Part shown: positions 874 through 28,519 of the stretch, piece by piece
Position numbering within the stretch: position 1 is the first letter of the stretch
How the letters are laid out: every line of letters begins with the position of its first letter
From: a virus
Direction: 5' to 3' (one strand)
IMG/VR virus record: IMGVR_UViG_3300032053_000210
Span: 1 to 38,228 of that record
Length of the DNA stretch: 38,228 nt
Notes under the pieces: generated by a model
Seen by the model: only the letters and a program-made list of their open reading frames with translations
Told to the model about the DNA's origin: nothing
Databases searched by the model: none
Made by a program: the position numbers and the translations under genes

Positions 874-1341
874 TTATGATTGTGATTTCTTTGTAAGGCG
901 CTTTAGAAGCTTCTGTTCTTTTTCGTCTAAGTCGGATCGTTGTTGTAATTCTTTTAGTGTGGCAGTGTCTTTAATCATTCGTCGAGCGCGATTTTCTTTT
1001 AGAGATTTTACTCTATGACAAGATTCACAAATTGTTTGCAAATTTTCAGGTCCACAGAATAGCCTTGTAATGAAGCTTTCCCAATTAGTAAACCCCCCGA
1101 CAACGGGTATCACGGGGTCAATATGGTCTACCGCGATCTGTGTGGAACTGACGTATTGCATGCACGTCTGACATTGATATTGGACATGATCTTTTTTTGC
1201 CCTAGAACCGTCCTTCTTAATACGGGGAACTTCCCGTCTAACTTTCTGAAGAACCTCACGGATAATAGGGGAGCGGGAAAAGGTACGCCGAAGAGCGCCG
1301 CGTATGGCCGCGTTCTCGTTATATGGAGGACGTTTACTCAA
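874..1341 (-). CDS. HNH endonuclease
   Basis: A 155-aa protein with a classic HNH nuclease core. CQTC (about residues 57-60) and CESCH (about 104-108) form a zinc-binding pair of knuckles, and VDHIDPV supplies the catalytic His region. The FCGPENLQTIC segment is the Asn-containing helix typical of phage HNH proteins. The N-terminus is very basic and the C-terminus is a charged helix rich in Lys and Glu. Its start overlaps the stop of the upstream HNH gene by 4 nt, so the two are translationally coupled. Free-standing phage HNH proteins are usually homing nucleases, although some assist the packaging terminase. The packaging genes here are far away on the other strand, so I favour homing. Confidence 0.85.
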   Translation of the reverse strand: MSKRPPYNENAAIRGALRRTFSRSPIIREVLQKVRREVPRIKKDGSRAKKDHVQYQCQTCMQYVSSTQIAVDHIDPVIPVVGGFTNWESFITRLFCGPENLQTICESCHRVKSLKENRARRMIKDTATLKELQQRSDLDEKEQKLLKRLTKKSQS

Positions 1342-1967
1342 ATCTTCTCCTTTCTTGGGATCAATTCAAATCTACCGGCATGAAGCGCCTTGTGTTCTTT
1401 GTGGGTTAAGGCGATTAGATTGGTGTGGTGGTTAAGACGCTCAATGTCCTCTTTGGTGTTAGCGGTTTTGAGGTATACGATATGGTGAATATGGCAGCCA
1501 GGGAACCAGCCTATTAAAGCCATTGCCTCCTCAAGGGAACAACCAAGAATTTTGCAGGTTTTAGAGGTTTTGGAAAATCCACCATTGTAAAAGGAGATAT
1601 TAATTAGGTTCCGGATACTTTGCGAGTAGCAAAAAAGCTCATCGATGGCACGGCGGACCTTCTGGCGGGCATTCTTTTTAGCCTTAGCTTCAGGGGTCCT
1701 ATTGTAAGCCTTTTTAGCGGCTTTACGTTCTGGAGTCTGGCTGTAAGCTATAGCGGCGGCTATGCCCTTTAGGGATTGTTTGTAGGACTTATTGTAAGAT
1801 TTAAATTCTGGAGTCTGGCCGCGAGCCTTATTGGCTGCTATGCGTTCAGGGGTCTGGTTGTAGGCTCTCTTATAGGCTACACATTCGGAGGTCCGTTGGT
1901 AGTGCTTTTGGCATAGTCCCTTGGATTTATGCTTCAAACCACACCCATCTATTGAACAGATTCTCAT
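1338..1967 (-). CDS. HNH homing endonuclease with zinc finger and 13-residue tandem repeats
   Basis: A 209-aa protein. Residues 4-22 hold a zinc-finger-like signature (C4, C9, C19, H22; GLCQKHY). Residues 21-98 are six consecutive 13-residue units with the core YxxTPE, a probable DNA-reading array. The C-terminal domain contains IHHIVYLKTANTKEDIERLN and ALTHKEHKALH, the His-rich nuclease core. That domain is nearly identical to the gene at 19441-19752 and to the remnant at 11506-11646, and the match is visible in the DNA too. It overlaps the gp46-like gene by 4 nt upstream and the next HNH gene by 4 nt downstream. Its base composition is richer in GC than the neighbours, as expected of a mobile gene. 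Confidence 0.85.
   Translation of the reverse strand: MRICSIDGCGLKHKSKGLCQKHYQRTSECVAYKRAYNQTPERIAANKARGQTPEFKSYNKSYKQSLKGIAAAIAYSQTPERKAAKKAYNRTPEAKAKKNARQKVRRAIDELFCYSQSIRNLINISFYNGGFSKTSKTCKILGCSLEEAMALIGWFPGCHIHHIVYLKTANTKEDIERLNHHTNLIALTHKEHKALHAGRFELIPRKEKI
1674..1907 (-). repeat. Six 39-bp tandem repeats inside the HNH gene
   Basis: Six units of exactly 13 codons encode diverged copies of a K/R-A-Y-x-x-T-P-E-x-x-A-x-x pattern. The first and fourth units are the most degenerate. The exact periodicity without indels suggests a modular DNA-binding array. Confidence 0.75.
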
Positions 1968-5049: not shown

Positions 5050-7755
5050 TTAGGTTCCTGACATTTGTGCTGCAAAAGCTTGGGCTGCCAGTTCCGCTTG
5101 TCTTTCTTCCACAATATCCCTAGGAATTGTAACAGCCCCTCCTAGAGTCATAAGAAGCTGAGACACAGAAACCGCATTATTAAGGGCGCTAATAGTTACC
5201 TTCACCGGATCAATTATCCCTGCTTTAAATGGCTCAACTAACTGGTGTCGAAGTGAGTCATATAAAAGTGTCGGCATTAAGTTGCTATTTGGAGTTACTG
5301 ACCCCTGTACCACTGTGCCGGGATTTATTATGTCCTGTTGCGTAACTCCAGAATTGGATAGTATTCGATTAAAAGGGACCGTGAAAGAAGACGCAAGAAT
5401 GCTCTTTGCTGGCGTTTGTTTTTCACGGAGAACTAAGGAAAGAGCCAGCAATGCCGATCCTCCTCCAGGAACCACCCCCATCTCAATTGCGGATCGAACA
5501 GAGTTAATGGTATCTTCGATCCTATGTTTTTTTTCTCTAATCTCTAATTCGGATGTACCGCCGACATAAATAGTGGCAATTCCACCAGATAATTGACTTA
5601 CCCTCTCCTTAATGATCTCAGCGTCAAAATCGCTTTCTGCAATTTCCATTTGCTTTTTCAAAACCTCCATCCGTTCTTTTACGGCGTCAGAATCGTTCAT
5701 GCCTAAAATTACAGACTGATACCTACCTATACGACTCTGTTCACAAACGCCTAAATCTTCCACTTTGGCGCTTTTCAAGTTCTTTGATATGGGATCAAAA
5801 ACTGTTCCACCTGTGAAGGCTGCTAAATCATGTAAAAGATGATGTTTTGAGTTTGGTTGTGCAGTGGCAACGGTTTCCAGAAGACATATTGCTGCCCTAT
5901 TTGCTTTCACATTAAACGAAATAACTTGAATAACCTGTGGTGAAAACTTATGAGCCACAATAACCATCGGCTTGATATTATCGCCCATTTGAACAAATAG
6001 GTTTTGCAATGGAATTCCTAGATCTTGAGCAACATTTAAATCACCATCGTAGAGTAAAATATAAGGCAAATCAAACACACACTGCTGGTCTTCCGGTCGG
6101 TTAATGAAGAGTTCCTGAACTGCTCCAAGGCTATTCAGTCCCTTTTGAATCGGGAAGCCTTCCCTCATTTCCACTACCGTTTTACGTCCAGAACCATCCT
6201 CTGTAATAATTGTTCCGTCTTGGCCTACAAGATCAATAGCCTCAACAACGGATTTAGCCACGTCTTCATCAGAATTGGATGAAATCATAGCTACGTGAAG
6301 GAGTTCTTCGGGGGTTCCAATCGGTTTGGCACCTGCCTTAAGAAGCTCCACCATTTCGTTTGAGGTGGCGTCTAATTCCCGACAAAGTTCTTGAGGAGAT
6401 TTAGTAGGATTGTTTTTAAGGAATTTCATTCCTTCCTCAACAATAGCTTGGGCAAGGACAATAGCAGTAGTGGTATTGTGGGTGGTAATATAGTCATTCG
6501 TTATGTAGAGGTTATCTGGATTGCTTACTTTGATGCACTGCATGGGAGTTTTTGTGCCTGTGGCTGTAATTTTATCAATTCTATCCCCACACTTATCCTC
6601 TTTGAGCTGGGTAACTCTATATATCGGTGTCATAGAATAAGACATACCTTCTTTTCTAATTATTTTGGATAGGGTAACTGTTTGGCCAAGACTACGACAC
6701 AAATCCACCATGTCCTTAGCTAATTCTTCGCTAACACTACTGAATTCAAAGAGACCCCTAGTATTGATGTAGCCGTCCGTATCCAATAAGCCGTGAAGTA
6801 ATTGTTTTCTGTTTGCTATAGATGTATACAAATAAGATTTGGGGATAAACTTATTATCACTTCTTCTTCCGAGAAGACCTAGGGATGTAATAATATCTTT
6901 AATATAATTACCATGTCTATCTCTACCAGATATTTTTACACGATAAGAATGTTTCTCCTCTACGTAGGTGCTATTGGTATGAAAACCTTCGGGCAATATT
7001 AATTTATCAATAATGTGCTCCTTTTTCATCCCTAAAGATAGTTCAACTGACCCGGTTCCGCTTAAACTACCGTCTCCCAACAGCACCCCCACTAAGTAGG
7101 GGTCTAGAGGCATTTCAGCGGAATTAGTGTAAAATTCAACTAGGCTTCGAGGCGTATAATATTTTCTTCTTACTCCACCTTCTGAGTTGTAACTAACATA
7201 ATCTTTTAAAAGGTCTGAGACAGTCTTAATTTCTATATTTCCATATGGAGTGGTATTAACGTTGGCGACCATCCAGAGGTGATCACCACAACACTCCACT
7301 ATCCTCCCATTTGCAAACTCAATCCTATAAATTTCTTTCTCGCCCTTTGGAAACACACCTAACACTTTTTGAATTGTGCCATTAGTGCCACAAATATCCA
7401 TACCCACTCGCACGTCACCCATAGTAATAAAACCTTTAGGAGTTAAAATTTTACTATATAGTGGTTGGGGACCATCGCCAGCTTCCCTATTGGTTCTCTG
7501 ACAAGCTTCTTTAGCGGCTTCTGAAATAACATGTTCCGTGGAATTTGATAAAGAAACAGATTCAGCAACAGTTACTCCATCTTTCGTTATGAGAGGGGAA
7601 AAACCGGGTCTTTCAATAAGAACAGGATTTCCACCGGGACCTAATGTCACACCCACTAAATCACTAAGCATTTTCATAGTTCTTAAAGTTATGGCATCAA
7701 GCATTTCACCTTTAAGTATAATTGTTTTTGCTTTGGTTTTTAGTTCTGTTCCCAT
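5050..7755 (-). CDS. groEL: Phage GroEL-like chaperonin interrupted by an intein
   Basis: The 901-aa precursor is a GroEL chaperonin split by a 332-residue intein (residues 96-427), leaving about 569 residues after splicing. GroEL hallmarks are VGVTLGPGGNPVLI near residue 35, TKDGVTVAESVSL, the ATP-site sequence GDG|TTTAIVLAQAIVEEG restored by splicing, and VPGGGSALLALS late in the protein. The tail lacks the Gly-Met repeat of bacterial GroEL and ends AAQAFAAQMSGT. Known: some large phages carry a divergent GroEL that folds phage proteins, in some cases without GroES. I see no GroES gene here. The Asp in GDG is the ATP-hydrolysis residue, so the unspliced form should be inactive. It sits 9 nt after the methyltransferase-like gene in the leftward operon. 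Confidence 0.95.
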   Translation of the reverse strand: MGTELKTKAKTIILKGEMLDAITLRTMKMLSDLVGVTLGPGGNPVLIERPGFSPLITKDGVTVAESVSLSNSTEHVISEAAKEACQRTNREAGDGPQPLYSKILTPKGFITMGDVRVGMDICGTNGTIQKVLGVFPKGEKEIYRIEFANGRIVECCGDHLWMVANVNTTPYGNIEIKTVSDLLKDYVSYNSEGGVRRKYYTPRSLVEFYTNSAEMPLDPYLVGVLLGDGSLSGTGSVELSLGMKKEHIIDKLILPEGFHTNSTYVEEKHSYRVKISGRDRHGNYIKDIITSLGLLGRRSDNKFIPKSYLYTSIANRKQLLHGLLDTDGYINTRGLFEFSSVSEELAKDMVDLCRSLGQTVTLSKIIRKEGMSYSMTPIYRVTQLKEDKCGDRIDKITATGTKTPMQCIKVSNPDNLYITNDYITTHNTTTAIVLAQAIVEEGMKFLKNNPTKSPQELCRELDATSNEMVELLKAGAKPIGTPEELLHVAMISSNSDEDVAKSVVEAIDLVGQDGTIITEDGSGRKTVVEMREGFPIQKGLNSLGAVQELFINRPEDQQCVFDLPYILLYDGDLNVAQDLGIPLQNLFVQMGDNIKPMVIVAHKFSPQVIQVISFNVKANRAAICLLETVATAQPNSKHHLLHDLAAFTGGTVFDPISKNLKSAKVEDLGVCEQSRIGRYQSVILGMNDSDAVKERMEVLKKQMEIAESDFDAEIIKERVSQLSGGIATIYVGGTSELEIREKKHRIEDTINSVRSAIEMGVVPGGGSALLALSLVLREKQTPAKSILASSFTVPFNRILSNSGVTQQDIINPGTVVQGSVTPNSNLMPTLLYDSLRHQLVEPFKAGIIDPVKVTISALNNAVSVSQLLMTLGGAVTIPRDIVEERQAELAAQAFAAQMSGT
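6475..7470 (-). mobile_element. Class 3-type intein with LAGLIDADG endonuclease in groEL
   Basis: It encodes precursor residues 96-427. It starts with Pro (PQPLYSKILTPKG) rather than Cys, Ser or Ala, and ends TTHN before the +1 Thr. The class 3 signature is complete: Trp161 two residues after the block B His (CGDHLW), Cys407 at the block F nucleophile position (QCIKV, where class 1 has Asp or similar), and Thr425 in the final THN. Two LAGLIDADG dodecapeptides (LVGVLLGDGSL and LHGLLDTDGYI) mark an embedded homing endonuclease. In class 3 inteins the block F Cys attacks the N-terminal splice junction directly. Boundaries follow from restoring the GroEL GDGTTT motif. Confidence 0.92.
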
Positions 7756-15951: not shown

Positions 15952-17148
15952 ATGGCACATGACATTATTTCATTAAAAGCTTCTCAGATTAAAGAATTAA
16001 TCAAAAATAGAGTTCGTAATAGAGGCATAAAAACTCGTCCAATTTATCTCGTAGGGCATAAGGGCATTGGTAAATCTCAAATAACCAAACAACTAGCCGA
16101 TGAACTATCTAAGGAATTTGGTGTTTCTGTTGAATGCCGAATCATTAATCTTCAATTTGTTGAACCGCCTGATTTTCTTGGGCTTCCATACGTGGATCAA
16201 GAATCAGATAGTTCCAATGTTCGCGTCACTCGTCACGCTAGACCAGAACTTCTACCTTTCAATGACGATATAGGAATTCTCTTTTTTGATGAAGCCAATC
16301 GTTGTGCTCGAGATAATCGACAGGGTTTAATAACGATAATCGAAGATCGAGCTGTCAACAATCATATTCTTGGAAAGAATTGGATAATTGTACTTGCTGG
16401 GAATCCTTCAGATGGTTCCGATGGTATTTCATATGAAACGCAGGAGTTTGATGCTGCCCTTGAAGATCGAATTTGCAGAGTGAATTTTCAAGGTGATGTT
16501 GCTGAATTTACAGATTTTATGGTTAAGAAACATGGGGAATCTCATCCAGTGGTAAGATGGATCATGAACCAACCAGAAATAGTTGATTTTAAAGGCAAAA
16601 CTCGCACTTCTCCACGCGGACTAGATTATTTGTGTGCTGGAATTGCAGTGGATGGCGGTTTTGAATCTCCCACTGTATGGCAAGCGATTGGTGCCGAAAT
16701 TGGAATGGAAGCGGCTCAGGTTTTCAGAAAGTTTCTTATGGACCCTGAAAAGATCTCTGCTGAAGACATTGTAGAAAATTTTGATAAGACCGACTCAATG
16801 GTTAAACTAAATGAGCTTGAAAAACATGGTAGGACAGATGTTTTAAATGCTTTAGTAAATAGTGTAGTGAATCTTTTGGTGAGTAGAGATATTAAACCAG
16901 AATATTTGGAGAATGTGGGAAAATATCTTCAAGGATCTACCGCTGAGACAATTTGTAATTTCTTTTTAGTTCTTGGTGAAAAAATCCCCACTAATGACAG
17001 TAGATTTTTACAGATTACCAATGTATTAGCAAAAAATCCTAGAGTAAAAGATACTTTAGATAAGTTTGATTCAGATGTTAGTGGTGAAACAATTAAAACA
17101 ACTCCATCTCAAAAAAAGCGTGGACGCCCATCTAAAAAACCTATTTGA
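15952..17148 (+). CDS. MoxR-family AAA+ ATPase
   Basis: A 398-aa AAA+ protein. Walker A is GHKGIGKS (35-42), Walker B ILFFDEANR (109-117), sensor 1 LAGNPSD (148-154), and FDAALEDR resembles the arginine-finger segment. The C-terminus (about 380-398) is basic and carries KKRGRPSKKP, an AT-hook-like DNA-contact motif. MoxR ATPases act with VWA-domain proteins to remodel or insert cofactors into target proteins. A VWA/metallopeptidase protein is encoded 43 bp downstream, matching this pairing. It has its own strong promoter. The AT-hook-like tail is unusual and hints that the complex may act on DNA or nucleoprotein (inference). Confidence 0.88.
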   Translation: MAHDIISLKASQIKELIKNRVRNRGIKTRPIYLVGHKGIGKSQITKQLADELSKEFGVSVECRIINLQFVEPPDFLGLPYVDQESDSSNVRVTRHARPELLPFNDDIGILFFDEANRCARDNRQGLITIIEDRAVNNHILGKNWIIVLAGNPSDGSDGISYETQEFDAALEDRICRVNFQGDVAEFTDFMVKKHGESHPVVRWIMNQPEIVDFKGKTRTSPRGLDYLCAGIAVDGGFESPTVWQAIGAEIGMEAAQVFRKFLMDPEKISAEDIVENFDKTDSMVKLNELEKHGRTDVLNALVNSVVNLLVSRDIKPEYLENVGKYLQGSTAETICNFFLVLGEKIPTNDSRFLQITNVLAKNPRVKDTLDKFDSDVSGETIKTTPSQKKRGRPSKKPI

Positions 17149-17173
17149 CAAAGTTTCTGATTTAGAGTAGAAT
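17145..17173 (+). promoter_or_regulatory. Strong sigma70-type promoter
   Basis: Perfect TTGACA (17145-17150) overlaps the MoxR stop codon, with a 17-bp spacer and TAGAAT (17168-17173), 18 nt before the VWA gene ATG. The two partner genes therefore each have a promoter. Confidence 0.75.
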
Positions 17174-17191
17174 AAAGATATAGGCCGTAAA

Positions 17192-18421
17192 ATGGATAAA
17201 AAACCATCAATGACTTTAGAAGAAATTCGAGCAGTTAATGATAAATTATCTAAAGCTATTATTAAATTCTTTGATCAATATCCTCTTTATTACATCATTC
17301 TTTCTTCTTTAGCTCGTATAGGTACTTCCGCAATTTCAACCATTGGTGTTGGCTTTGATTCTCAAAATATTATTTCTTTATTTTATAATCCTGATTTTAT
17401 TGGGAAATTAGATACTAATGAGCTTCAAATTGTTTTAAATCATGAATGTCAACATTTAGGTCTTCGCCATTTAGATCGCGGTAAGAGTCAAAAATATCAC
17501 GAAAATAAAAAATTGGCTAATGTGGCAATGGATATTGTGATTAATGACGCTATTGCTGATTTTATATCGTCTGCACCAAATTTATATAAAAAAGCAATGA
17601 CTGCCGATAAATTTGAATCTCTTCAGGGGGTTGTGATTAGAGACAAGACATGGGAACAACTTTTTGAAATTATCAAGGAAGAAGTTGATAAACAAAAGAG
17701 TAAAATGGAACAACTTTTTAAAGACGCAATGGATTCGCATGATAAGTGGAATGGAGAAGATGGGCAACAGTCTGATCTTAGTCCTGAACAACAAATGGCC
17801 CTTGATGGACTGATGAAGGATGCTGTTAAGAATCTTGGTAATCGTGATCCCGGAAATGTTCCAGGCGCTATGCGTAGAATGGTTGAAGAAATTCGTAAGG
17901 TATTTTTTAATTGGAGAAGGGAACTTAGTATATTTGCCCAAATAGTTGCCCAGGAAGATCGTATCCCCACTTGGAAAAAAATTAATAGGCGTCTTGGGAC
18001 TATTAGTCCTGGTAACAAGAAGGAATTTAAACCTAATATTTTGCTAGTTGTAGATAATTCTGGGTCTATTGATGGACCTATTTATGATTTATTTATGTCA
18101 CATATGTTAAAAATTTCAGAAACCTGTAATCGGATTGATGGAATTGGTGTTGATACGAAAGTTAATTGTGAATTTAAACTTGAAAAGGGTAAAACTCCTA
18201 ATTTAAAAGATTTATTATCTGGAGGTGGAACTAATTTTCAACCAGCTTTTGATTATGCAAAGAAAAAAGGAGATTATAGCGGGATTGTTTATTTTACAGA
18301 TGGTTATAATTTTGATTCTTTTATTACACATAGTATCCCTGTCATTTTTGCCATTTGTGCGGGCGGAAAAGAGGTCATGGGATATCGGAATATAAGAATT
18401 GAAGACGATGAATCTATTTAG
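17192..18421 (+). CDS. Metallopeptidase-like plus VWA-domain protein (DUF2201-type)
   Basis: A 409-aa protein. The N-terminal half holds a zincin-like motif NHECQHLGLRH (83-93; His84, Glu85, His88) in a fold typical of VWA-associated putative metallopeptidases. The C-terminal half is a VWA-like domain with the MIDAS motif DNSGS (288-292), a downstream GGGTNF Thr (about 347) and FTDG Asp (370). These proteins pair with MoxR ATPases, as here. The target is unknown; the HExxH arrangement suggests it could cut or bind a protein substrate delivered by the ATPase (inference). It lies directly downstream of its partner and upstream of a second zincin gene. Confidence 0.85.
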   Translation: MDKKPSMTLEEIRAVNDKLSKAIIKFFDQYPLYYIILSSLARIGTSAISTIGVGFDSQNIISLFYNPDFIGKLDTNELQIVLNHECQHLGLRHLDRGKSQKYHENKKLANVAMDIVINDAIADFISSAPNLYKKAMTADKFESLQGVVIRDKTWEQLFEIIKEEVDKQKSKMEQLFKDAMDSHDKWNGEDGQQSDLSPEQQMALDGLMKDAVKNLGNRDPGNVPGAMRRMVEEIRKVFFNWRRELSIFAQIVAQEDRIPTWKKINRRLGTISPGNKKEFKPNILLVVDNSGSIDGPIYDLFMSHMLKISETCNRIDGIGVDTKVNCEFKLEKGKTPNLKDLLSGGGTNFQPAFDYAKKKGDYSGIVYFTDGYNFDSFITHSIPVIFAICAGGKEVMGYRNIRIEDDESI

Positions 18422-19145: not shown

Positions 19146-19454
19146 ATGATTAAGTTGGATTCATATTGGAATGATAAAGTAATGGCGGGAAAAGTCAAAC
19201 AATTAAGAGATGAGTTACCTCAATTTTTTGAAAACGTTGAAGGCTATGATTTATTTCTGTCCTGGTTGAAATTTTCAGATTATAGTTGGTTGGAGCCCAC
19301 TCCCAAAGCTGTTGAAACCTTTATTGCTGAAATTGATATTGATAATTTAAAATTATTGAATGATTGCGATGATGGAGATGAAGACGGTGAGTTGGAAGAT
19401 TATGACAATTTGTTTACTACTGATTGTGATTGGTCTTTTGATGAAGAAAAGTGA
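19146..19454 (+). CDS. Highly acidic 102-aa protein
   Basis: I chose the ATG at 19146 because a GGAGG ribosome site lies just upstream, rather than an in-frame ATG at 19113. About 28 of 102 residues are Asp or Glu against roughly 9 Lys or Arg. The last 35 residues are almost all acidic (CDDGDEDGELEDYDN). The first 65 residues are Trp- and Phe-rich and helical. No family is recognised. Small, very acidic phage proteins are sometimes DNA mimics that block restriction or nucleoid enzymes. The neighbouring ArdC-like zincin fits that idea (inference). The HNH gene begins inside its 3' end. Confidence 0.6.
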   Translation: MIKLDSYWNDKVMAGKVKQLRDELPQFFENVEGYDLFLSWLKFSDYSWLEPTPKAVETFIAEIDIDNLKLLNDCDDGDEDGELEDYDNLFTTDCDWSFDEEK

Positions 19455-19752
19455 ATTTTATAATGATCCTATGAGGATGAGAGGAATTGCTACCTCATTT
19501 AAAAGGAATGGATTTAAAAAAGATTCGAAAACGGCGGCTATTCTGGGGTGTGATTTCGAAACCGCCTTTAAATCAATAGGCTGGTTCAGAGGTTGCGAAA
19601 TTCACCACATCGTCTATCTAAAAACCGCCAATACCAAAGAAGACGTGGAGCGTCTTAACCACTACACCAACCTAATTGCCTTAACCCACAAAGAACATAG
19701 GGCCGTACACAAGGGGATTTTTGAGTTAATTAATATGGGGAGAAAAAAATGA
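19441..19752 (+). CDS. HNH homing endonuclease, short form
   Basis: From the ATG at 19441, which overlaps the acidic gene by 14 nt, this gives 103 aa. The frame is open further upstream in the other gene's sequence, but that part looks like a shadow. The domain core (GFKKDSKTAAILGCDFETA, then IHHIVYLKTANTKEDVERLN, then ALTHKEHRAVH) matches the nuclease domain of the HNH gene at 1338-1967, with long identical DNA stretches. The zinc finger and tandem repeats are absent, so DNA targeting may differ or the gene may be a truncated derivative. It overlaps the cyclase-like gene by 4 nt and contributes its ribosome site. Confidence 0.8.
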   Translation: MKKSEFYNDPMRMRGIATSFKRNGFKKDSKTAAILGCDFETAFKSIGWFRGCEIHHIVYLKTANTKEDVERLNHYTNLIALTHKEHRAVHKGIFELINMGRKK

Positions 19753-20285
19753 TTAATTTTATAAATCAGGCGAATTTAAGTAGAAAAATAAATAAAGCGG
19801 ATCTTTTTAAATTCATAGTTAAATTAGCACAGGACACGGCATCGCATAACGCCCCGCACTGGGGTTTGTTCTTAATAGTCGGAAATTTTGCTCTAGTGTC
19901 GTATAAACTCGAACAGTATATACAGCTAACCACAAACGACCTAGATGGTCACTATGTGGCATACGGAAGTAAGGCGTTTAAGGATATCTTTATTGAAAAC
20001 TGTAAAAAAAATATCGACGGGGCATTCATTTTAGATACCGCATCCGGCCAGCTTTTAGGTAATAGGGTTTTATATTTAGACCTTAAGAGCGAGATTTCAG
20101 AGGAACGCGGCGCAAGGCATCACGCTTCCGCTTCCGCATCTCTAGATTCCAATATTGAGTTTATTATAACCGTTTCGGAAGAGACACTCAATGTCCGTCT
20201 ATACAACGATGGGAAAGTAGAATCATCGGAAGAGGTGGGAGTTCAGCAATTGGGTTTAGAGTCTATAGCGGAAGATACCCTCTGA
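19749..20285 (+). CDS. Diadenylate cyclase (DAC / DisA_N-like) domain protein
   Basis: A 178-aa protein with the DAC fold pattern. A hydrophobic strand WGLFLIVGNFALV (38-50) is followed by FKDIFIENC, then NIDGAFILD with the DGA motif (90-92). GARHHASASAS (121-131) aligns with the family GTRHRAA motif, and ITVSEETLNVRLYNDGKV (140-157) matches the SEETG segment. DAC enzymes join two ATP into cyclic di-AMP, a second messenger controlling potassium, osmolyte and cell-wall physiology. The RHR motif is RHH here, so activity needs testing. No DisA DNA-binding or CdaA membrane domain is attached. It is coupled to the HNH gene by ATGA with a GGGGAG site, and its base composition is richer in GC than neighbouring genes, suggesting transfer. 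Confidence 0.8.
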   Translation: MINFINQANLSRKINKADLFKFIVKLAQDTASHNAPHWGLFLIVGNFALVSYKLEQYIQLTTNDLDGHYVAYGSKAFKDIFIENCKKNIDGAFILDTASGQLLGNRVLYLDLKSEISEERGARHHASASASLDSNIEFIITVSEETLNVRLYNDGKVESSEEVGVQQLGLESIAEDTL

Positions 20286-20301: not shown

Positions 20302-23300
20302 ATGAGCTTTAAGCCCTACATTGACCTTCATGTTCATTCCCACTACTCCCTACTCGATGGGGTGAGTAGTCCTGAAGAGATTATTGAACGCGCCAAAGAA
20401 CTCGGAGCCACTTCTGTAGCCATTACGGACCACGGGAATGTTTCCGGGATTTATGAGTTTTATTGGGCCGCTAAAAAAGTTGGTATTAAGCCTCTGATAG
20501 GTTGCGAGTTTTACATGAAGGGTGATTTATCTAACAATGATTCTAAATATTTTCATGGCATTTTAATAGCTATGAATAAGAAGGGATTTGAAAATCTCCT
20601 AAAATTATCTTCAATGGCTCGTAATGAAGAACATATGATAGGAACAACCGAAAGGAACAAACGCCCCATTATTTCCTTTAAGGAGATTTTCAAACACTCT
20701 GAGGGACTTCTTTTTTCCACTGCCTGTGTCGTTGGTATCTCTGGGGCTTGCCAGAAGAAGATGGCTAAGTTAAAGACAGGTAAGGGGAATAAGTACGAAA
20801 GTCATAATCTTTCTTTTCAAGAGGTTGACCTTCTATTTGGAGCTTTTAAGGCAGTTTTCAAAGATAGGATGTTTGTTGAGATTCATCCGGCTAGAGTGAA
20901 TACCGATTATAACAATAATGTTTTTGTTGTTAGACCCGTAGAGAATACGGAGTTTGGTGAACTGCAATTTTCCACTAATTGTCTACAAGAAGAACACAAT
21001 CGTAGATCAATTCTAATGGCCAAGAGGCACGGTTTACCACTTGTGATAGCTACTGATGCTCACATGATAAGACCGGATCTTAAGACTGTACAAGATTTGT
21101 TAATTAAAAATGCTGCTGATAACTTTAATGGATGGCATTTTGATGAAACTTTTTCCATGGTAGGGTCTGAGGAAATGTGGAATATGTTTCAAAAGAATCA
21201 TCCATATATCACTAAAGAATTATTTGAACAATGTATTGACAATACATATATGGCGGCATCTCTTTGTGAAGATATTCAATTGGATTTTAAAACTATTGTT
21301 CCAAAATTTCCATTATGGCTTCTTGAGAAAAAGATAGCCGATTCCGCAGTCCAGGCTTATTTCCATGAAAGATATAAAGATATTTATAAGCCCGGAATGA
21401 CATCTAGAGAAATGATGTTTGCGATTATTAAACGCACTGGAAGAATGCCAAAGGATAATTTACAATATTTAAGGCGATTGCAAGAAGAAGTGAAAGTTAT
21501 ATGCGATAATGGGATCATTGATTTTACAGACTACTTTCTTATTTTGTCTGATACAGTTAATGCGGCTCCATATTTGGGGGTCGGTGTAGGTCCTGGCCGT
21601 GGAAGTTCAGCTGGTTGTTTACTCGCTTATTTACTTGGAGTAACCTCCATTGATCCAATTAAATATGATTTAAGTTTTGTACGTTTTTTAAATGCAGGAC
21701 GTATCGAGAGCGGACAGATGCCAGATATTGATTTGGATTTCAGCAATCGAAGTTTAATTGTGAAATATCTTTTCGAGCTATACGGTAAGGATTATGTTTC
21801 GTTGGTGGGAACATTCCAGACCATCAAAACAAAAAATGCGTTGAAGGATATTGTTAGGACACTCAATGGCGGACATCTGAAGAGTGATGATGAGATATTT
21901 AAAGTTTGTGCTGAAATCGATACTGCCCCCCAATATTATCCGACCGAAAAGGCATTTTTAGAGGGTTTCACGGATGATGACGGTGATTACCATAGTGGGA
22001 TGTTGGAAAGCAATAAAACTCTTCGTACTTATCTTGAAACCCATCCTGAAGTGAATAAGATGCTTTTTGAGATTTTAGAGAAGCCTCGTAATCAAAGTAA
22101 GCACGCCGGTGGTGTGGTTATTACTTCCCCCATATCTATTGACTCTGTAATTCCTACCCAGTTCTTACATGGGGATAAGAGTACACAAGTAGATTATAGG
22201 ACATTGGAAAAGATCGGTGGCCTTAAGATAGATATATTGGGCGTCAACACACTGAATTTTATTTGGGACGCTGTGAAATTAATTGAAAAGAGACACGGAA
22301 TTAAATTAGATCCATGGAACCTACCGGAAGATATTCAGGTATTTAAGATGCTGTCTAGGGGGGATACTTCTACAGTTTTTCAATTGGACACACAAGTGGC
22401 CATCCCTATATTAAAGGCGATCAGTGTTAATTCCATAAGCGATCTTGCATTAGTAACCGCCGTTGGTCGTCCTGGGTGTCTGGATTCTAAACTTGAAGAT
22501 GGGGTGTCTGTAGCGGATCACTTTATAAAGCGAAAACGTGGTGAAGAGCCTTTAGTATTACTAGATCCTATATTAGAACCGATTTTAGGTAAAACTTATT
22601 CCATTCCAATCTTCCAAGAACAGGTCCAAAAGATATTTGAAGTTGTTGGTGGCCTTTCTCCCGTGGAATCAGACGACGCACGTCGCGCAATGGGGAAAAA
22701 GAACCTACAAGTACTTTTAAGTATTAAGAAGCAACTTTTTGATGGCGCTCAATTTCGTCTTGGATGGAATGAAGAAAAATGTGAAGCCTTATGGCAATCG
22801 TTTATAGGTTCTGCAAACTACAATTTTAACGAAGCCCACGCATATGGATATTCGGTTATTGCTTATGCTTGTGCATATCTTAAGAAGAAATACCCCTTGG
22901 AGTGGTGGTGTGCTGTTCTGTCCCATATTGGATCAGATAAAGTTAAGACCTATTTAGGCGAAATTGAAGATTTTATGAAATTGCCTAACGTGAATTATCC
23001 TCAAAATCAATGGGTAATTACTGAAGATTCTAAACTCATTTCGCCATTAACTTTGATTTTAGGGATTAGTGAGAAAACAGTTGGTGAAATAGCATTAAAT
23101 TCGCCTTTCACCTCATTTGAGGACTTTTTTAATAGGGTTCATAAGCGTACTGTTAATAAAACTGCAATCAATAATATGATAATAACAGGATGTTTCACGA
23201 GAATTCCGATAAGAGATGGTGGACCCTTATTAACTGACTCCCAAAACGACACAAATGCCCTTTTGGCTCACTTTGGGGAGCTACGCAGGGAAAAGGAGCC

Positions 23301-23802
23301 CCCCAGGACATGGACCGATTTAGAGCTGATTAAGGAGCGTTCAAGGCTATTGTCAGTGGTGTCTTATGAGTATGTCGAAATATTCAAAGAGTCATTAAAA
23401 AATAGTAAAAATTTGGATTTTATTGAAGTTCGAAATGAAGTTGGTGATATATTTTACAAGATAGACAACTGTATTGTTATCACAAATTCTGATAATTTCG
23501 ACTTCTGGTACCAAAATCTCGGTTTAGATACTAAGATTTGTTTTGTAGGAATTTTTAATGATGAGTCTAAGATGTTTCATTATATCGAAAAGAAAACAGG
23601 TAATAAAGTGGGGGCCTACAAGTTACTGGTTGAAAATGATAATAGAATTGTTGAAACTGTCATTTGGCCTAATACACTTTCAAAGACCTCAAAGAGAGAT
23701 TTTGAAAATGGAGCTATTTTAGCGGTGTTTGGGACTCTAAGAAAAAGTGGTTTTAAGAAGAATATTGAATTTAGTTATCTTTTTCATAAAAGAATTTTAT
23801 AA
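20302..23802 (+). CDS. dnaE: DNA polymerase III alpha subunit (C-family)
   Basis: A 1166-aa DnaE-type replicative polymerase. The N-terminal PHP domain starts YIDLHVHSHYSLLDG (6-20) and continues with ITDHGN and GCEFY. The palm holds GPGRGSSAG and the catalytic PDIDLDF (474-480; Asp475, 477 and 479). The finger/thumb continues with KHAGGVVI, the helix-hairpin-helix-like segment NEAHAYGYSVIAY and the later region up to the OB-like C-terminal part. Length matches bacterial DnaE. With the AEP primase-helicase it gives the phage its own fork. Most T4-like phages use a B-family enzyme, so this is a distinct replication type. It lies 16 bp after the cyclase-like gene. Confidence 0.95.
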   Translation: MSFKPYIDLHVHSHYSLLDGVSSPEEIIERAKELGATSVAITDHGNVSGIYEFYWAAKKVGIKPLIGCEFYMKGDLSNNDSKYFHGILIAMNKKGFENLLKLSSMARNEEHMIGTTERNKRPIISFKEIFKHSEGLLFSTACVVGISGACQKKMAKLKTGKGNKYESHNLSFQEVDLLFGAFKAVFKDRMFVEIHPARVNTDYNNNVFVVRPVENTEFGELQFSTNCLQEEHNRRSILMAKRHGLPLVIATDAHMIRPDLKTVQDLLIKNAADNFNGWHFDETFSMVGSEEMWNMFQKNHPYITKELFEQCIDNTYMAASLCEDIQLDFKTIVPKFPLWLLEKKIADSAVQAYFHERYKDIYKPGMTSREMMFAIIKRTGRMPKDNLQYLRRLQEEVKVICDNGIIDFTDYFLILSDTVNAAPYLGVGVGPGRGSSAGCLLAYLLGVTSIDPIKYDLSFVRFLNAGRIESGQMPDIDLDFSNRSLIVKYLFELYGKDYVSLVGTFQTIKTKNALKDIVRTLNGGHLKSDDEIFKVCAEIDTAPQYYPTEKAFLEGFTDDDGDYHSGMLESNKTLRTYLETHPEVNKMLFEILEKPRNQSKHAGGVVITSPISIDSVIPTQFLHGDKSTQVDYRTLEKIGGLKIDILGVNTLNFIWDAVKLIEKRHGIKLDPWNLPEDIQVFKMLSRGDTSTVFQLDTQVAIPILKAISVNSISDLALVTAVGRPGCLDSKLEDGVSVADHFIKRKRGEEPLVLLDPILEPILGKTYSIPIFQEQVQKIFEVVGGLSPVESDDARRAMGKKNLQVLLSIKKQLFDGAQFRLGWNEEKCEALWQSFIGSANYNFNEAHAYGYSVIAYACAYLKKKYPLEWWCAVLSHIGSDKVKTYLGEIEDFMKLPNVNYPQNQWVITEDSKLISPLTLILGISEKTVGEIALNSPFTSFEDFFNRVHKRTVNKTAINNMIITGCFTRIPIRDGGPLLTDSQNDTNALLAHFGELRREKEPPRTWTDLELIKERSRLLSVVSYEYVEIFKESLKNSKNLDFIEVRNEVGDIFYKIDNCIVITNSDNFDFWYQNLGLDTKICFVGIFNDESKMFHYIEKKTGNKVGAYKLLVENDNRIVETVIWPNTLSKTSKRDFENGAILAVFGTLRKSGFKKNIEFSYLFHKRIL

Positions 23803-26359: not shown

Positions 26360-28519
26360 ATGACAACAAATTGGTATTCCAGAATCCAAAAAATGGGGGA
26401 TGGCTTAATCGCAGATCAAATGGGGAGTACCTCTGAAGCGAAGAGGGTCCTTATCCCCTCTCCGAGCTTCAATTGGGCGGTAGGAGGGGGCCTAGTCTAC
26501 GGAAAAGTCTGTACCGTTTATGGGCCTGAGCAGTGTCAACCTGCTGGTTCTAAAGTGCTGATGGCGAACGGGGAGTTTAAAAATATTGAAGACATAAAGG
26601 TTGGGGATAATGTTCTTTCTCCTCAACGTAACGATGAATATAATTTTTCTACAGTTTTACACACAACCTCCTGGTTTTGTGAGGATATGTACACCATAAA
26701 ATCACTAAGAAAGAATAATCCAATATTATATTCTTGTTCCGGTAATCATATCGTTCCTCATACTTTTCTTGATCAACGAAAAATTCCCAAGACAAGAAAA
26801 AGCGGTCAATTCCGCGTTACCAGAGAATTGACCGCTAAAGAGATTTTTTCACTTAAGGCGGGACTGATACAAAACAGTCATGTCGTAACATGTCCCTTGA
26901 TCGCCAAGTTTAACAGGGCGGAAAATCCTCAGATAGACGGCTATGCGCTGGGGGTATATTTGGGAGATGGTCATCTTGCACCGAGTGGTCAGGTTAGTCT
27001 AACGAATGTCAATATGGGAATTTTGGATAGACTCTTATCATTGGGGGCAATTTTCCCCAGTGGTATTAGGGAAAGGAAAGGAAATCCCCATATAAAGGTG
27101 GTGACTTTAAGTAAGTTTCATCCGTGGGTTAAATATTTTGAAAAGGTTGGTTTATTGGGTAAATTAAGTCATGATAAGTTTATTCCAAACGAGGCTAAAT
27201 TTTCTGATTTAGAATATCGGCAAAACTTACTAACCGGTTTATTAGATACGGACGGGTATTATGATGTGAAAAAAAATACTTATGAATACGCCACCGTTTC
27301 AACACAACTGGCTAAGGATGTGCAGTTTTTGGTTCACTCATTAGGCGGATATGCGGGGATTTCTGAACGTTTTACTAGCTATAATAAGGGGGGAACGAAA
27401 TTTAAAAGTTATCGCCTATATATACAGCTTAACATGCAATTAAAGATGTTAAACAAATATAAGCGAATGAAATTCATTCCTTATAGGCGATCAAATTGCC
27501 GCCATCAGGGGTTTTTGATAGAGCGTTCTAACCCGCAACAGGTGTATGGTTTCGTGCTAGACTCCCCTTCAAACTGGTATGTTACAGATAATTATATTAT
27601 TACGCACAATTCAGGCAAGTCTTTGATAGCTCAATTAGCTATCGCCTCTATGCATAAAGAAGACCCTGAAGCTTGGGCATTATGGTATGATGCTGAGTTT
27701 AGTTTCGATTCCCAATATGCTTCTAAACTAGGAATAGACCTAAAACGTTTAATGGTTGTACAATCTAATAAGCCGTCTGATATTTTTGATCATTTTGTAG
27801 ATCAAATTCTTCCTATGTTACAGGATGAAGAACCTTTTCCTTTGAAGATTATGGTTATTGATTCTATTAAGTCAATTCGCGGCCCCAAAGAAGCTGACAA
27901 AGATTCGGTTGAGGCGCAGATCATGGGCGACCTGTCTCAGCTTTTGCAGAAGGCATTTCGCAAGATTATTCCGCCCATTAAGCAGAATAAGATCCTCCTG
28001 ATCTGTGTGCAACAGGTTTCAGAGGAGTTTGATCAGACACGAGTTATGCAAGGTCACAAATGGCATGTCCCGTCTGGAATGGCCCTCAAACACGCTTCTG
28101 ATTATATGATTCTTGTTGAGAAGGTTGAGAATAAAGCAAGTAAAATATTTGATGAAACCCATAAGGGTATCAGTAATCTTCCTATTCAATTGGGACACAT
28201 TATTCGCTGTAAGGTCGAAAAGAATCGTGTCAATTGTCCTCATCTCGTTGCTCAATTTAGACTTCAATATGGTGTTGGTGTAGTGGATACGGAACTTGAA
28301 GTTTGTGAACTTGCAGTTAATATTGGTGTAGTAAATAGACCTACACAAGCTGCATATGAGTTTGAAGGTATTAAAGTGGTAGGAATTGCTAACTTCGTGA
28401 ATAAAGTTAAAAAAGATCCCAAGCTTTATAACGCACTGGTTGAGGCTATTAATAAGACAGATGTTTTTAGGAAGAGGGAAGTACCTACAACTCCAGTTAT
28501 TGAGGATGATGAGGAATAA
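26360..28519 (+). CDS. uvsX: UvsX/RecA-like recombinase interrupted by an intein in its P-loop
   Basis: The 719-aa precursor is a RecA-fold recombinase with a 359-residue intein (59-417), leaving 360 residues. Extein parts: NWAVGGGLVYGKVCTVYGPEQ, joined after splicing to SGKSLIAQLAIASM, which rebuilds Walker A GPEQSGKS. Walker B is KIMVIDSIKSI. QNKILLICVQQVSEEF is the loop L1/sensor region and HASDYMILVEK follows. The acidic tail is VIEDDEE. UvsX coats ssDNA and performs strand exchange in recombination-dependent replication and repair. Because the intein splits Walker A, ATPase activity requires splicing. The ATG follows AAAGGAG. The stop overlaps the gp47 gene start by 1 nt. Confidence 0.92.
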   Translation: MTTNWYSRIQKMGDGLIADQMGSTSEAKRVLIPSPSFNWAVGGGLVYGKVCTVYGPEQCQPAGSKVLMANGEFKNIEDIKVGDNVLSPQRNDEYNFSTVLHTTSWFCEDMYTIKSLRKNNPILYSCSGNHIVPHTFLDQRKIPKTRKSGQFRVTRELTAKEIFSLKAGLIQNSHVVTCPLIAKFNRAENPQIDGYALGVYLGDGHLAPSGQVSLTNVNMGILDRLLSLGAIFPSGIRERKGNPHIKVVTLSKFHPWVKYFEKVGLLGKLSHDKFIPNEAKFSDLEYRQNLLTGLLDTDGYYDVKKNTYEYATVSTQLAKDVQFLVHSLGGYAGISERFTSYNKGGTKFKSYRLYIQLNMQLKMLNKYKRMKFIPYRRSNCRHQGFLIERSNPQQVYGFVLDSPSNWYVTDNYIITHNSGKSLIAQLAIASMHKEDPEAWALWYDAEFSFDSQYASKLGIDLKRLMVVQSNKPSDIFDHFVDQILPMLQDEEPFPLKIMVIDSIKSIRGPKEADKDSVEAQIMGDLSQLLQKAFRKIIPPIKQNKILLICVQQVSEEFDQTRVMQGHKWHVPSGMALKHASDYMILVEKVENKASKIFDETHKGISNLPIQLGHIIRCKVEKNRVNCPHLVAQFRLQYGVGVVDTELEVCELAVNIGVVNRPTQAAYEFEGIKVVGIANFVNKVKKDPKLYNALVEAINKTDVFRKREVPTTPVIEDDEE
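26534..27610 (+). mobile_element. Intein with LAGLIDADG endonuclease in the UvsX P-loop
   Basis: It encodes 359 residues from Cys59 (CQPAGSKVLMANGEF) to THN before a +1 Ser. Block B is CSGNH, the LAGLIDADG blocks are LGVYLGDGHL and LTGLLDTDGYY, and block F/G is YVTDNYIITHN. With Cys1, a penultimate His and final Asn it fits class 1 splicing. It begins with the same CQP/PQP-SKxL pattern as the groEL intein, and its endonuclease core looks related to it. Confidence 0.93.

What the first reader, a model, noticed from the sequence alone, without database searches (positions are those of the whole stretch)
19749..20285. Phage-encoded stand-alone diadenylate cyclase-like protein
The sequence shows the DAC landmarks DGA (90-92), GARHH (121-125) and VSEET (142-146) in the right order and spacing within 178 residues, with no DisA or CdaA accessory domain. 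DAC enzymes make c-di-AMP. A phage carrying one could rewire host osmotic or cell-wall physiology, or interfere with c-di-nucleotide-based defence; these roles are inference. The RHR motif is RHH here, so it may also be a nucleotide-binding sponge. The gene is ATGA-coupled to an HNH nuclease and has distinct base composition, suggesting recent transfer.
Basis: partly seen in the sequence, partly recalled or inferred. Interest (0 to 1): 0.85.

Follow-up and report, generated by a model that had tools for sequence, protein, structure and literature searches.

The report
Phage-borne compact c-di-AMP synthase domain
An environmental phage carries a small gene for a diadenylate cyclase domain, the enzyme that makes the bacterial signal c-di-AMP; its nearest match found is in a second large phage, so phages may be able to make this host signal themselves, though activity has not been tested.

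Summary
The 178-aa ORF at 19749-20285 is a genuine diadenylate cyclase (DAC) domain: Pfam DAC 39.7 bits against a cut-off of 27, and 35.6 bits with a profile I built from 40 cellular DACs, while the best of 1000 shuffles scored 7.7. It keeps every column invariant in those 40. The contig is a phage related to Myxococcus phage Mx1. The gene is an accessory next to DnaE: no DAC was found in Mx1 or in 50 related records. The unusual change is Thr to Ala just before it. I found a second stand-alone phage DAC in a 206-kb IMG/VR contig with a tail sheath (P0003, 58 bits to this protein against at most 40 for cellular DACs). Both share, with a family on haloarchaeal plasmids, a one-residue-longer spacing after the RH motif that 44 of 44 CdaA/DisA/CdaS/DacZ sequences lack. 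A tree neither proves nor rejects a single clade. Most likely it is a compact c-di-AMP synthase used during infection. Activity is inferred, the role in infection is speculative, and both structure models failed.

The parts
19749..20285 (+). Stand-alone DAC-domain protein (P0001, 178 aa), predicted compact diadenylate cyclase
   Evidence: Pfam DAC 39.7 bits vs cut-off 27; independent DAC profile 35.6 bits; closest match phage protein P0003, 58.2 bits
20016..20024 (+). DGA motif (residues 90-92), ribose/metal side of the DAC active site
   Evidence: invariant in 40 of 40 cellular DACs and kept here
20109..20123 (+). GARHH (residues 121-125), counterpart of GTRHR; third residue His, Thr replaced by Ala
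   Evidence: G, R, H invariant and kept; GTRHR 39, GTRHH 3, GMRHR 1, GSRHR 1 of 44
20172..20186 (+). VSEET (residues 142-146); Ser143 lies 19 residues after His124 (18 in other DAC classes)
19737..19742 (+). GGGGAG, likely ribosome-binding site of the DAC gene
   Evidence: read
19441..19752 (+). Small HNH endonuclease (103 aa from the ATG at 19441), ATGA-coupled to the DAC gene
   Evidence: weak HNH matches: phrog_119 E 0.0017, Pfam HNH_2 below cut-off; conserved GCxIHHIVYLK...NLIALTHKEH core; 79% identical over 156 nt to 1360-1515
19146..19454 (+). Small acidic ORF (102 aa from the ATG at 19146), overlapping the HNH start; no family
20302..23802 (+). Phage DNA polymerase III alpha (DnaE), 16 nt after the DAC stop; conserved downstream neighbour of the variable slot
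   Evidence: phrog_405 E 3e-225; the closest relative has VWA, then another gene, then DnaE
17192..18421 (+). DUF2201/VWA-like protein, the conserved upstream border of the variable slot
   Evidence: Pfam DUF2201_N E 1e-16; found upstream of DnaE in L090
18450..19094 (+). Zincin-like metallopeptidase (MPTase-PolyVal; PHROG anti-restriction), slot gene upstream of the HNH-DAC pair
1338..1967 (-). HNH paralogue elsewhere in the window, without a DAC gene beside it
   Evidence: inverted repeat I1, 156 nt, 79%

Best explanation
The gene encodes a compact diadenylate cyclase with nothing but the DAC domain. Two copies would face each other, each holding one ATP, and join the two into 3',3'-c-di-AMP. 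It is expressed with an HNH nuclease and the phage DNA polymerase. In infected cells the extra c-di-AMP would most likely act on host c-di-AMP receptors (potassium and osmolyte transport, turgor, envelope) in the phage's favour. Shown here: DAC homology, all invariant active-site residues kept, phage context, accessory position, and a second phage with a similar protein. Inferred: catalysis, oligomer state, co-expression, product and effect on the host.
For: DAC family match well over cut-off and with an independent profile against shuffles and 8065 ORFs. All columns invariant in 40 cellular DACs are kept: G39, D90, G91, A92, L108, G121, R123, H124, S143. RHH has precedents in two DacZ proteins and in the sole DAC found in genome G097; H. 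volcanii DacZ makes c-di-AMP in vitro (PMC6741144). A second phage carries a stand-alone DAC with GTRHK and SEET (P0003, 65.9 bits), and P0001's best match of all is this protein. Intact ORF with a ribosome-binding site, coupled to its neighbour.
Against: Thr before RHR is Ala here, seen in none of 44 comparison sequences, and this Thr contacts the nucleotide phosphate in S. aureus DacA (PMC6368335). Replacing RHR by AAA abolishes activity in M. tuberculosis DacA (PMC3328451). The protein sits on a very long branch. Structure models have mean pLDDT of 37 and 39, so the active site cannot be checked. No c-di-AMP phosphodiesterase was noticed and no Rfam riboswitch matched in the window, and the host and its use of c-di-AMP are unknown.
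Confidence: 0.6

Rival explanations
1. A DAC domain that has lost catalysis but still binds c-di-AMP, ATP or a defence nucleotide, acting as a sponge or decoy.
For: Both departures from the usual motif (Ala122, His125) are in the phosphate-binding loop; very long branch; phages are known to use nucleotide sponges (papers listed).
Against: Every invariant catalytic column is kept; RHH has precedents in DacZ and in a sole CdaA; the related phage protein keeps Thr and a basic third residue.
Confidence: 0.24
2. A passenger gene without benefit, carried into the slot with the HNH element and decaying.
For: HNH genes are mobile and a paralogue lies elsewhere in the window; the slot differs in the closest relative; no DAC in 50 related records.
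Against: Intact ORF with ribosome-binding site and coupling; motifs kept despite great divergence; a second, distantly related phage also holds such a gene, without an HNH ORF immediately beside it.
Confidence: 0.1
3. A two-gene cyclase-effector unit: the DAC makes a signal and the coupled HNH nuclease responds to it, like a miniature CBASS borne by the phage against rivals.
For: HNH and DAC are translationally coupled, and cyclase plus nuclease is a known defence layout (background knowledge).
Against: The HNH protein is only 103 aa with no ligand-sensing domain found, its paralogue stands without a DAC, PADLOC gives no DAC hit, and the second phage DAC has no HNH ORF beside it.
Confidence: 0.04

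Closest known systems
Stand-alone DAC of the 206-kb phage contig IMGVR_UViG_3300009537_002640 (L172 5724-6281, P0003)
   Same: Phage, compact (185 aa), DAC domain only, DGA, SEET, 19-residue H-to-S spacing, SL and V-x-(V/L)-(W/Y)-x-DGK signature; 30% identity over 145 aa
   Different: Keeps GTRH with Lys third; set between a SLOG (YpsA) protein and a sigma factor, near SpoVR; gene neighbourhood quite unlike the window's
Small diadenylate cyclases of haloarchaeal plasmids (L184-L186; 26 plasmid records)
   Same: About 185 aa, DAC domain only, 19-residue spacing, T-(L/V)-SEE, similar C-terminal strand; on extrachromosomal elements
   Different: Gly-Thr-(Arg/Lys)-His-(Leu/Met); two of three beside a cation:proton antiporter; only 25-28 bits to P0001; activity of these small ones not known to me
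DacZ/CdaZ (archaeal diadenylate cyclase)
   Same: DAC domain with RHH in the two examples read; best NCBIfam hit of P0001 (18.7 bits)
   Different: 268 aa with an N-terminal domain; SES rather than SEE; 18-residue spacing
CdaA/DacA (PF02457, membrane-bound housekeeping class)
   Same: DGA, GxRH, VSEET; Pfam DAC
   Different: N-terminal membrane helices and CdaR operon absent; RHR, HDGA, 18-residue spacing in the reference set
DisA
   Same: DAC domain, DGA preceded by a non-His residue
   Different: No helix-hairpin-helix DNA-binding part; SEE instead of SxR/SQR; 18-residue spacing

Membership tests
DAC domain family (Pfam PF02457) | Match over the curated cut-off | tested here: met
   39.7 bits vs 27; whole-record search 40.2 bits
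DAC domain family (Pfam PF02457) | DGA motif | tested here: met
   D90 G91 A92
DAC domain family (Pfam PF02457) | G-x-R-H loop, usually RHR | tested here: met
   G121, R123, H124 kept; the third residue is His, not Arg, as in three of 44 comparison DACs (two DacZ, one CdaA)
DAC domain family (Pfam PF02457) | Thr before RHR contacting the phosphate | tested here: not met
   Ala122; Thr in 42 of 44, Met in one (Rossellomorea DisA), Ser in one. Not treated as defining
DAC domain family (Pfam PF02457) | Ser-Glu-Glu after the loop | tested here: met
   S143 E144 E145
DAC domain family (Pfam PF02457) | DAC fold | tested here: inconclusive
   AlphaFold2 models with pLDDT 37 (single sequence) and 39 (three sequences); no fold search made
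DAC domain family (Pfam PF02457) | c-di-AMP synthesis | not testable with these tools
   needs an enzyme assay
CdaA class | N-terminal membrane helices and CdaR partner gene | tested here: not met
   178-aa protein that is only the DAC domain; neighbours are HNH and DnaE
DisA class | C-terminal linker and helix-hairpin-helix DNA-binding domain | tested here: not met
   ORF ends 22 residues after the DAC match; NCBIfam DisA 16.8 bits vs cut-off 201
CdaS class | Two-helix N-terminal YojJ extension | tested here: inconclusive
   Too few residues before the domain for it, and spacing 19 not 18, but no CdaS-specific model was run
DacZ class | N-terminal archaeal domain, about 268 aa in all | tested here: not met
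   NCBIfam DacZ 18.7 bits vs cut-off 430
Compact stand-alone DAC group (proposed here) | DAC domain alone and 19-residue H-to-S spacing | tested here: met
   P0001, P0003 and L184-L186 have 19; 44 of 44 others 18
Compact stand-alone DAC group (proposed here) | Monophyly | tested here: inconclusive
   one side of a branch with support 57/66, neither shown nor rejected; P0001 and P0003 alone p-AU 0.405
CBASS | CD-NTase with a sensing effector | tested here: not met
   no PADLOC hit for the DAC; HNH protein has no sensor domain found

The most novel reading that the evidence does not exclude
There is an undescribed class of compact, DAC-only c-di-AMP synthases carried by mobile elements (large phages and haloarchaeal plasmids), marked by a one-residue-longer loop after the RH motif, through which phages take direct control of host c-di-AMP, or of c-di-AMP-like defence signals, during infection.
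Probability: 0.3. Interest if true: 0.85.

Novelty: new variant of a known kind. Interest (0 to 1): 0.62.

Why it matters
c-di-AMP is essential in many bacteria and harmful when in excess, so a phage that makes it would have a direct handle on host turgor, potassium and envelope control. Phage proteins that bind or degrade nucleotide signals are known; I found no report of a phage that makes c-di-AMP (open-access library only). Two phages with very different gene neighbourhoods but similar small DACs, plus a simple diagnostic spacing, make the idea easy to search for and to test with a single enzyme assay.

Tried and rejected
Single-protein scans of IMG/VR and GTDB genomes with P0001: no relative. 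tblastn of P0001 in phage records: none; CdaA hits in that collection come from unverified, unannotated contigs, and the four read are bacterial cdaA-cdaR operons, so contamination. A Vibrio phage hit (H82) was rejected: wrong strand, weak. Mx1's annotated 'nucleotide cyclase' is not a DAC (sequence reads GGDEF-like; PF02457 search of Mx1 negative). Nearest bacterial hits in Bacillota were ordinary CdaA, all 256-344 aa; no compact DAC in 398 or 199 genomes searched. Of four other motif-pattern hits in IMG/VR, none is a DAC. Structure prediction failed, so no fold search was run. No c-di-AMP riboswitch in the window. Trees could not place P0001 because of its long branch.

Full report
What is there. 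The ORF at 19749-20285 (+) encodes 178 residues. Pfam's DAC family matches residues 74-156 with 39.7 bits (cut-off 27). It gives P0001 35.6 bits (E 2e-9 among 8065 ORFs of the window and related phages), while the best of 1000 shuffled copies reaches 7.7 bits. All columns invariant in those 40 sequences (G39, D90, G91, A92, L108, G121, R123, H124, S143 in P0001 numbering) are kept. The pattern DGA...GxRHx...SEE at DNA level is found once in the window and never in 100 shuffles.

The genome around it. The window is a virus record. Its terminase is 32% identical to that of Myxococcus phage Mx1 (169.6 kb) and 57% to IMG/VR contig L010; 89 stretches of IMG/VR encode a relative. GroEL, DnaE, RecA and SSB genes recur in Mx1. 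Mx1 has no DAC by whole-record search, nor do 50 related IMG/VR records, though many of these are fragments. In the closest relative the DUF2201/VWA gene is followed by a different ORF (it reads like a C39-type peptidase; not searched) and then DnaE. In the window the same slot holds a zincin peptidase, a small acidic ORF, an HNH gene and the DAC gene, so the DAC is an accessory gene in a variable slot.

Coupling and mobility. The small ORF, the HNH ORF (from the ATG at 19441) and the DAC ORF overlap one another (14 nt and 4 nt), and DnaE starts 16 nt after the DAC stop. The HNH core is 79% identical over 156 nt to a second HNH gene at 1338-1967 (-). HNH genes of this kind are often homing endonucleases (general knowledge), which would explain how the pair entered. 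GC3 of the DAC gene is high (3 of 193 other windows reach it) but total GC is ordinary, so composition is weak evidence for recent transfer.

Is the active site intact? Two residues of the phosphate loop differ from the common GTRHR: Ala122 and His125. RHH, however, occurs in two haloarchaeal DacZ proteins, the class in which H. volcanii DacZ was shown to make c-di-AMP with Mn2+ (PMC6741144; I did not read the H. volcanii sequence itself). It also occurs in one bacterial CdaA that sits in a cdaA-cdaR pair and is the only DAC found in its genome. In a survey of 299 Bacillota genomes the RHR form matched in 132 genomes and the RHH form in 5, of which only this one is a DAC (GAT-coded Asp only, and some RHR matches are chance). 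Thr to Ala is the more unusual change: 42 of 44 comparison sequences have Thr, one Met (a DisA), one Ser. In S. aureus DacA this Thr contacts the phosphate (PMC6368335), and RHR to AAA kills M. tuberculosis DacA (PMC3328451). Activity is therefore plausible and not assured. Two AlphaFold models were of low confidence and are not used.

A second phage DAC. A motif scan of IMG/VR gave five hits; one is a true DAC. It is 185 aa (P0003, Pfam DAC 65.9 bits), in a 206,495-bp contig with a tail sheath gene, PhoH, dUTPase and ribonucleotide reductase. It lies between a SLOG-family protein and a sigma factor, near SpoVR. P0001 matches P0003 at 58.2 bits, 30% identity over residues 19-158, N-terminal part included. 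Its best cellular match scores about 40 bits.

A shared mark. In P0001 and P0003 the Ser of SEE lies 19 residues after the His of GxRH; in 44 of 44 CdaA, DisA, CdaS and DacZ sequences it lies 18 after. Three small (183-185 aa) diadenylate cyclases from haloarchaeal plasmids also have 19, and tblastn finds this family on 26 plasmid records. I noticed this spacing after seeing the sequences, so it needs an independent test. A tree places the five on one side of a branch with support of only 57/66 and warns of long branches; a P0001+P0003 clade is not rejected (p-AU 0.405). No compact DAC appeared among Bacillota genomes; all hits of the phage pair's profile were 256-344 aa.

How it probably works. 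DAC enzymes join two ATP across two facing domains (PMC8573169). A domain-only protein must form such a pair by itself or in a larger oligomer. The most likely function is synthesis of c-di-AMP in the infected cell, acting on host receptors of potassium and osmolyte transport or the envelope. Counter-defence by flooding or mimicking nucleotide signals is possible. None of this is shown here, and the host is unknown.

Verdict. A genuine, divergent DAC in a phage; member of the DAC domain family, but not of the CdaA, DisA or DacZ classes (CdaS not tested with a model); probably active (about 0.6). No earlier report of a phage DAC turned up in an open-access full-text library, which does not cover all journals; earlier comparative-genomics papers on nucleotide-based conflict systems could not be read.

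Noticed in passing
window 5050-7755 (-) and 26360-28519 (+): GroEL and RecA genes both interrupted in frame by intein-like insertions (NCBIfam intein matches).
   Followed up: no
window 15952-18421 (+): MoxR-type AAA ATPase followed by a DUF2201 metallopeptidase/VWA-like protein, a pair that also has PHROG families; function in phages unclear.
   Followed up: no
window 874-1967 (-): Two HNH genes end to end, of which one is the paralogue of the HNH coupled to the DAC gene.
   Followed up: partly
L172 5070-8403 (-): Jumbo-phage run SpoVR - small ORF - SLOG (YpsA) - DAC - sigma factor, closely packed; a sporulation-like gene next to a c-di-AMP synthase domain.
   Followed up: partly
L184, L185, L186 (haloarchaeal plasmids): Small DACs; two of three lie next to a cation:proton antiporter gene and two of three near a universal stress protein gene, suggesting a plasmid-borne ion-homeostasis module.
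   Followed up: partly
L139 985-1803 (genome G097): Bacterial CdaA with GTRHHAG instead of GTRHRAA, the only DAC found in its genome.
   Followed up: yes
L002 17173-17904 (Mx1): Phage Mx1 has a 'nucleotide cyclase' whose sequence looks GGDEF-like (FRNGGDEF), between prohead protease and major capsid genes.
   Followed up: partly
L102, L106, L107, L111-L114, L116, L119, L120: DnaE of several related phages lies in two ORFs with breaks near the same profile positions (about 560 or 680), perhaps inteins or split genes.
   Followed up: no
phage records OR846611, OR845009, MT835502, MT835774, MT836709 and others: Unverified 'phage' records that carry CdaA; those read hold bacterial cdaA-cdaR operons, so likely host contamination.
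   Followed up: partly
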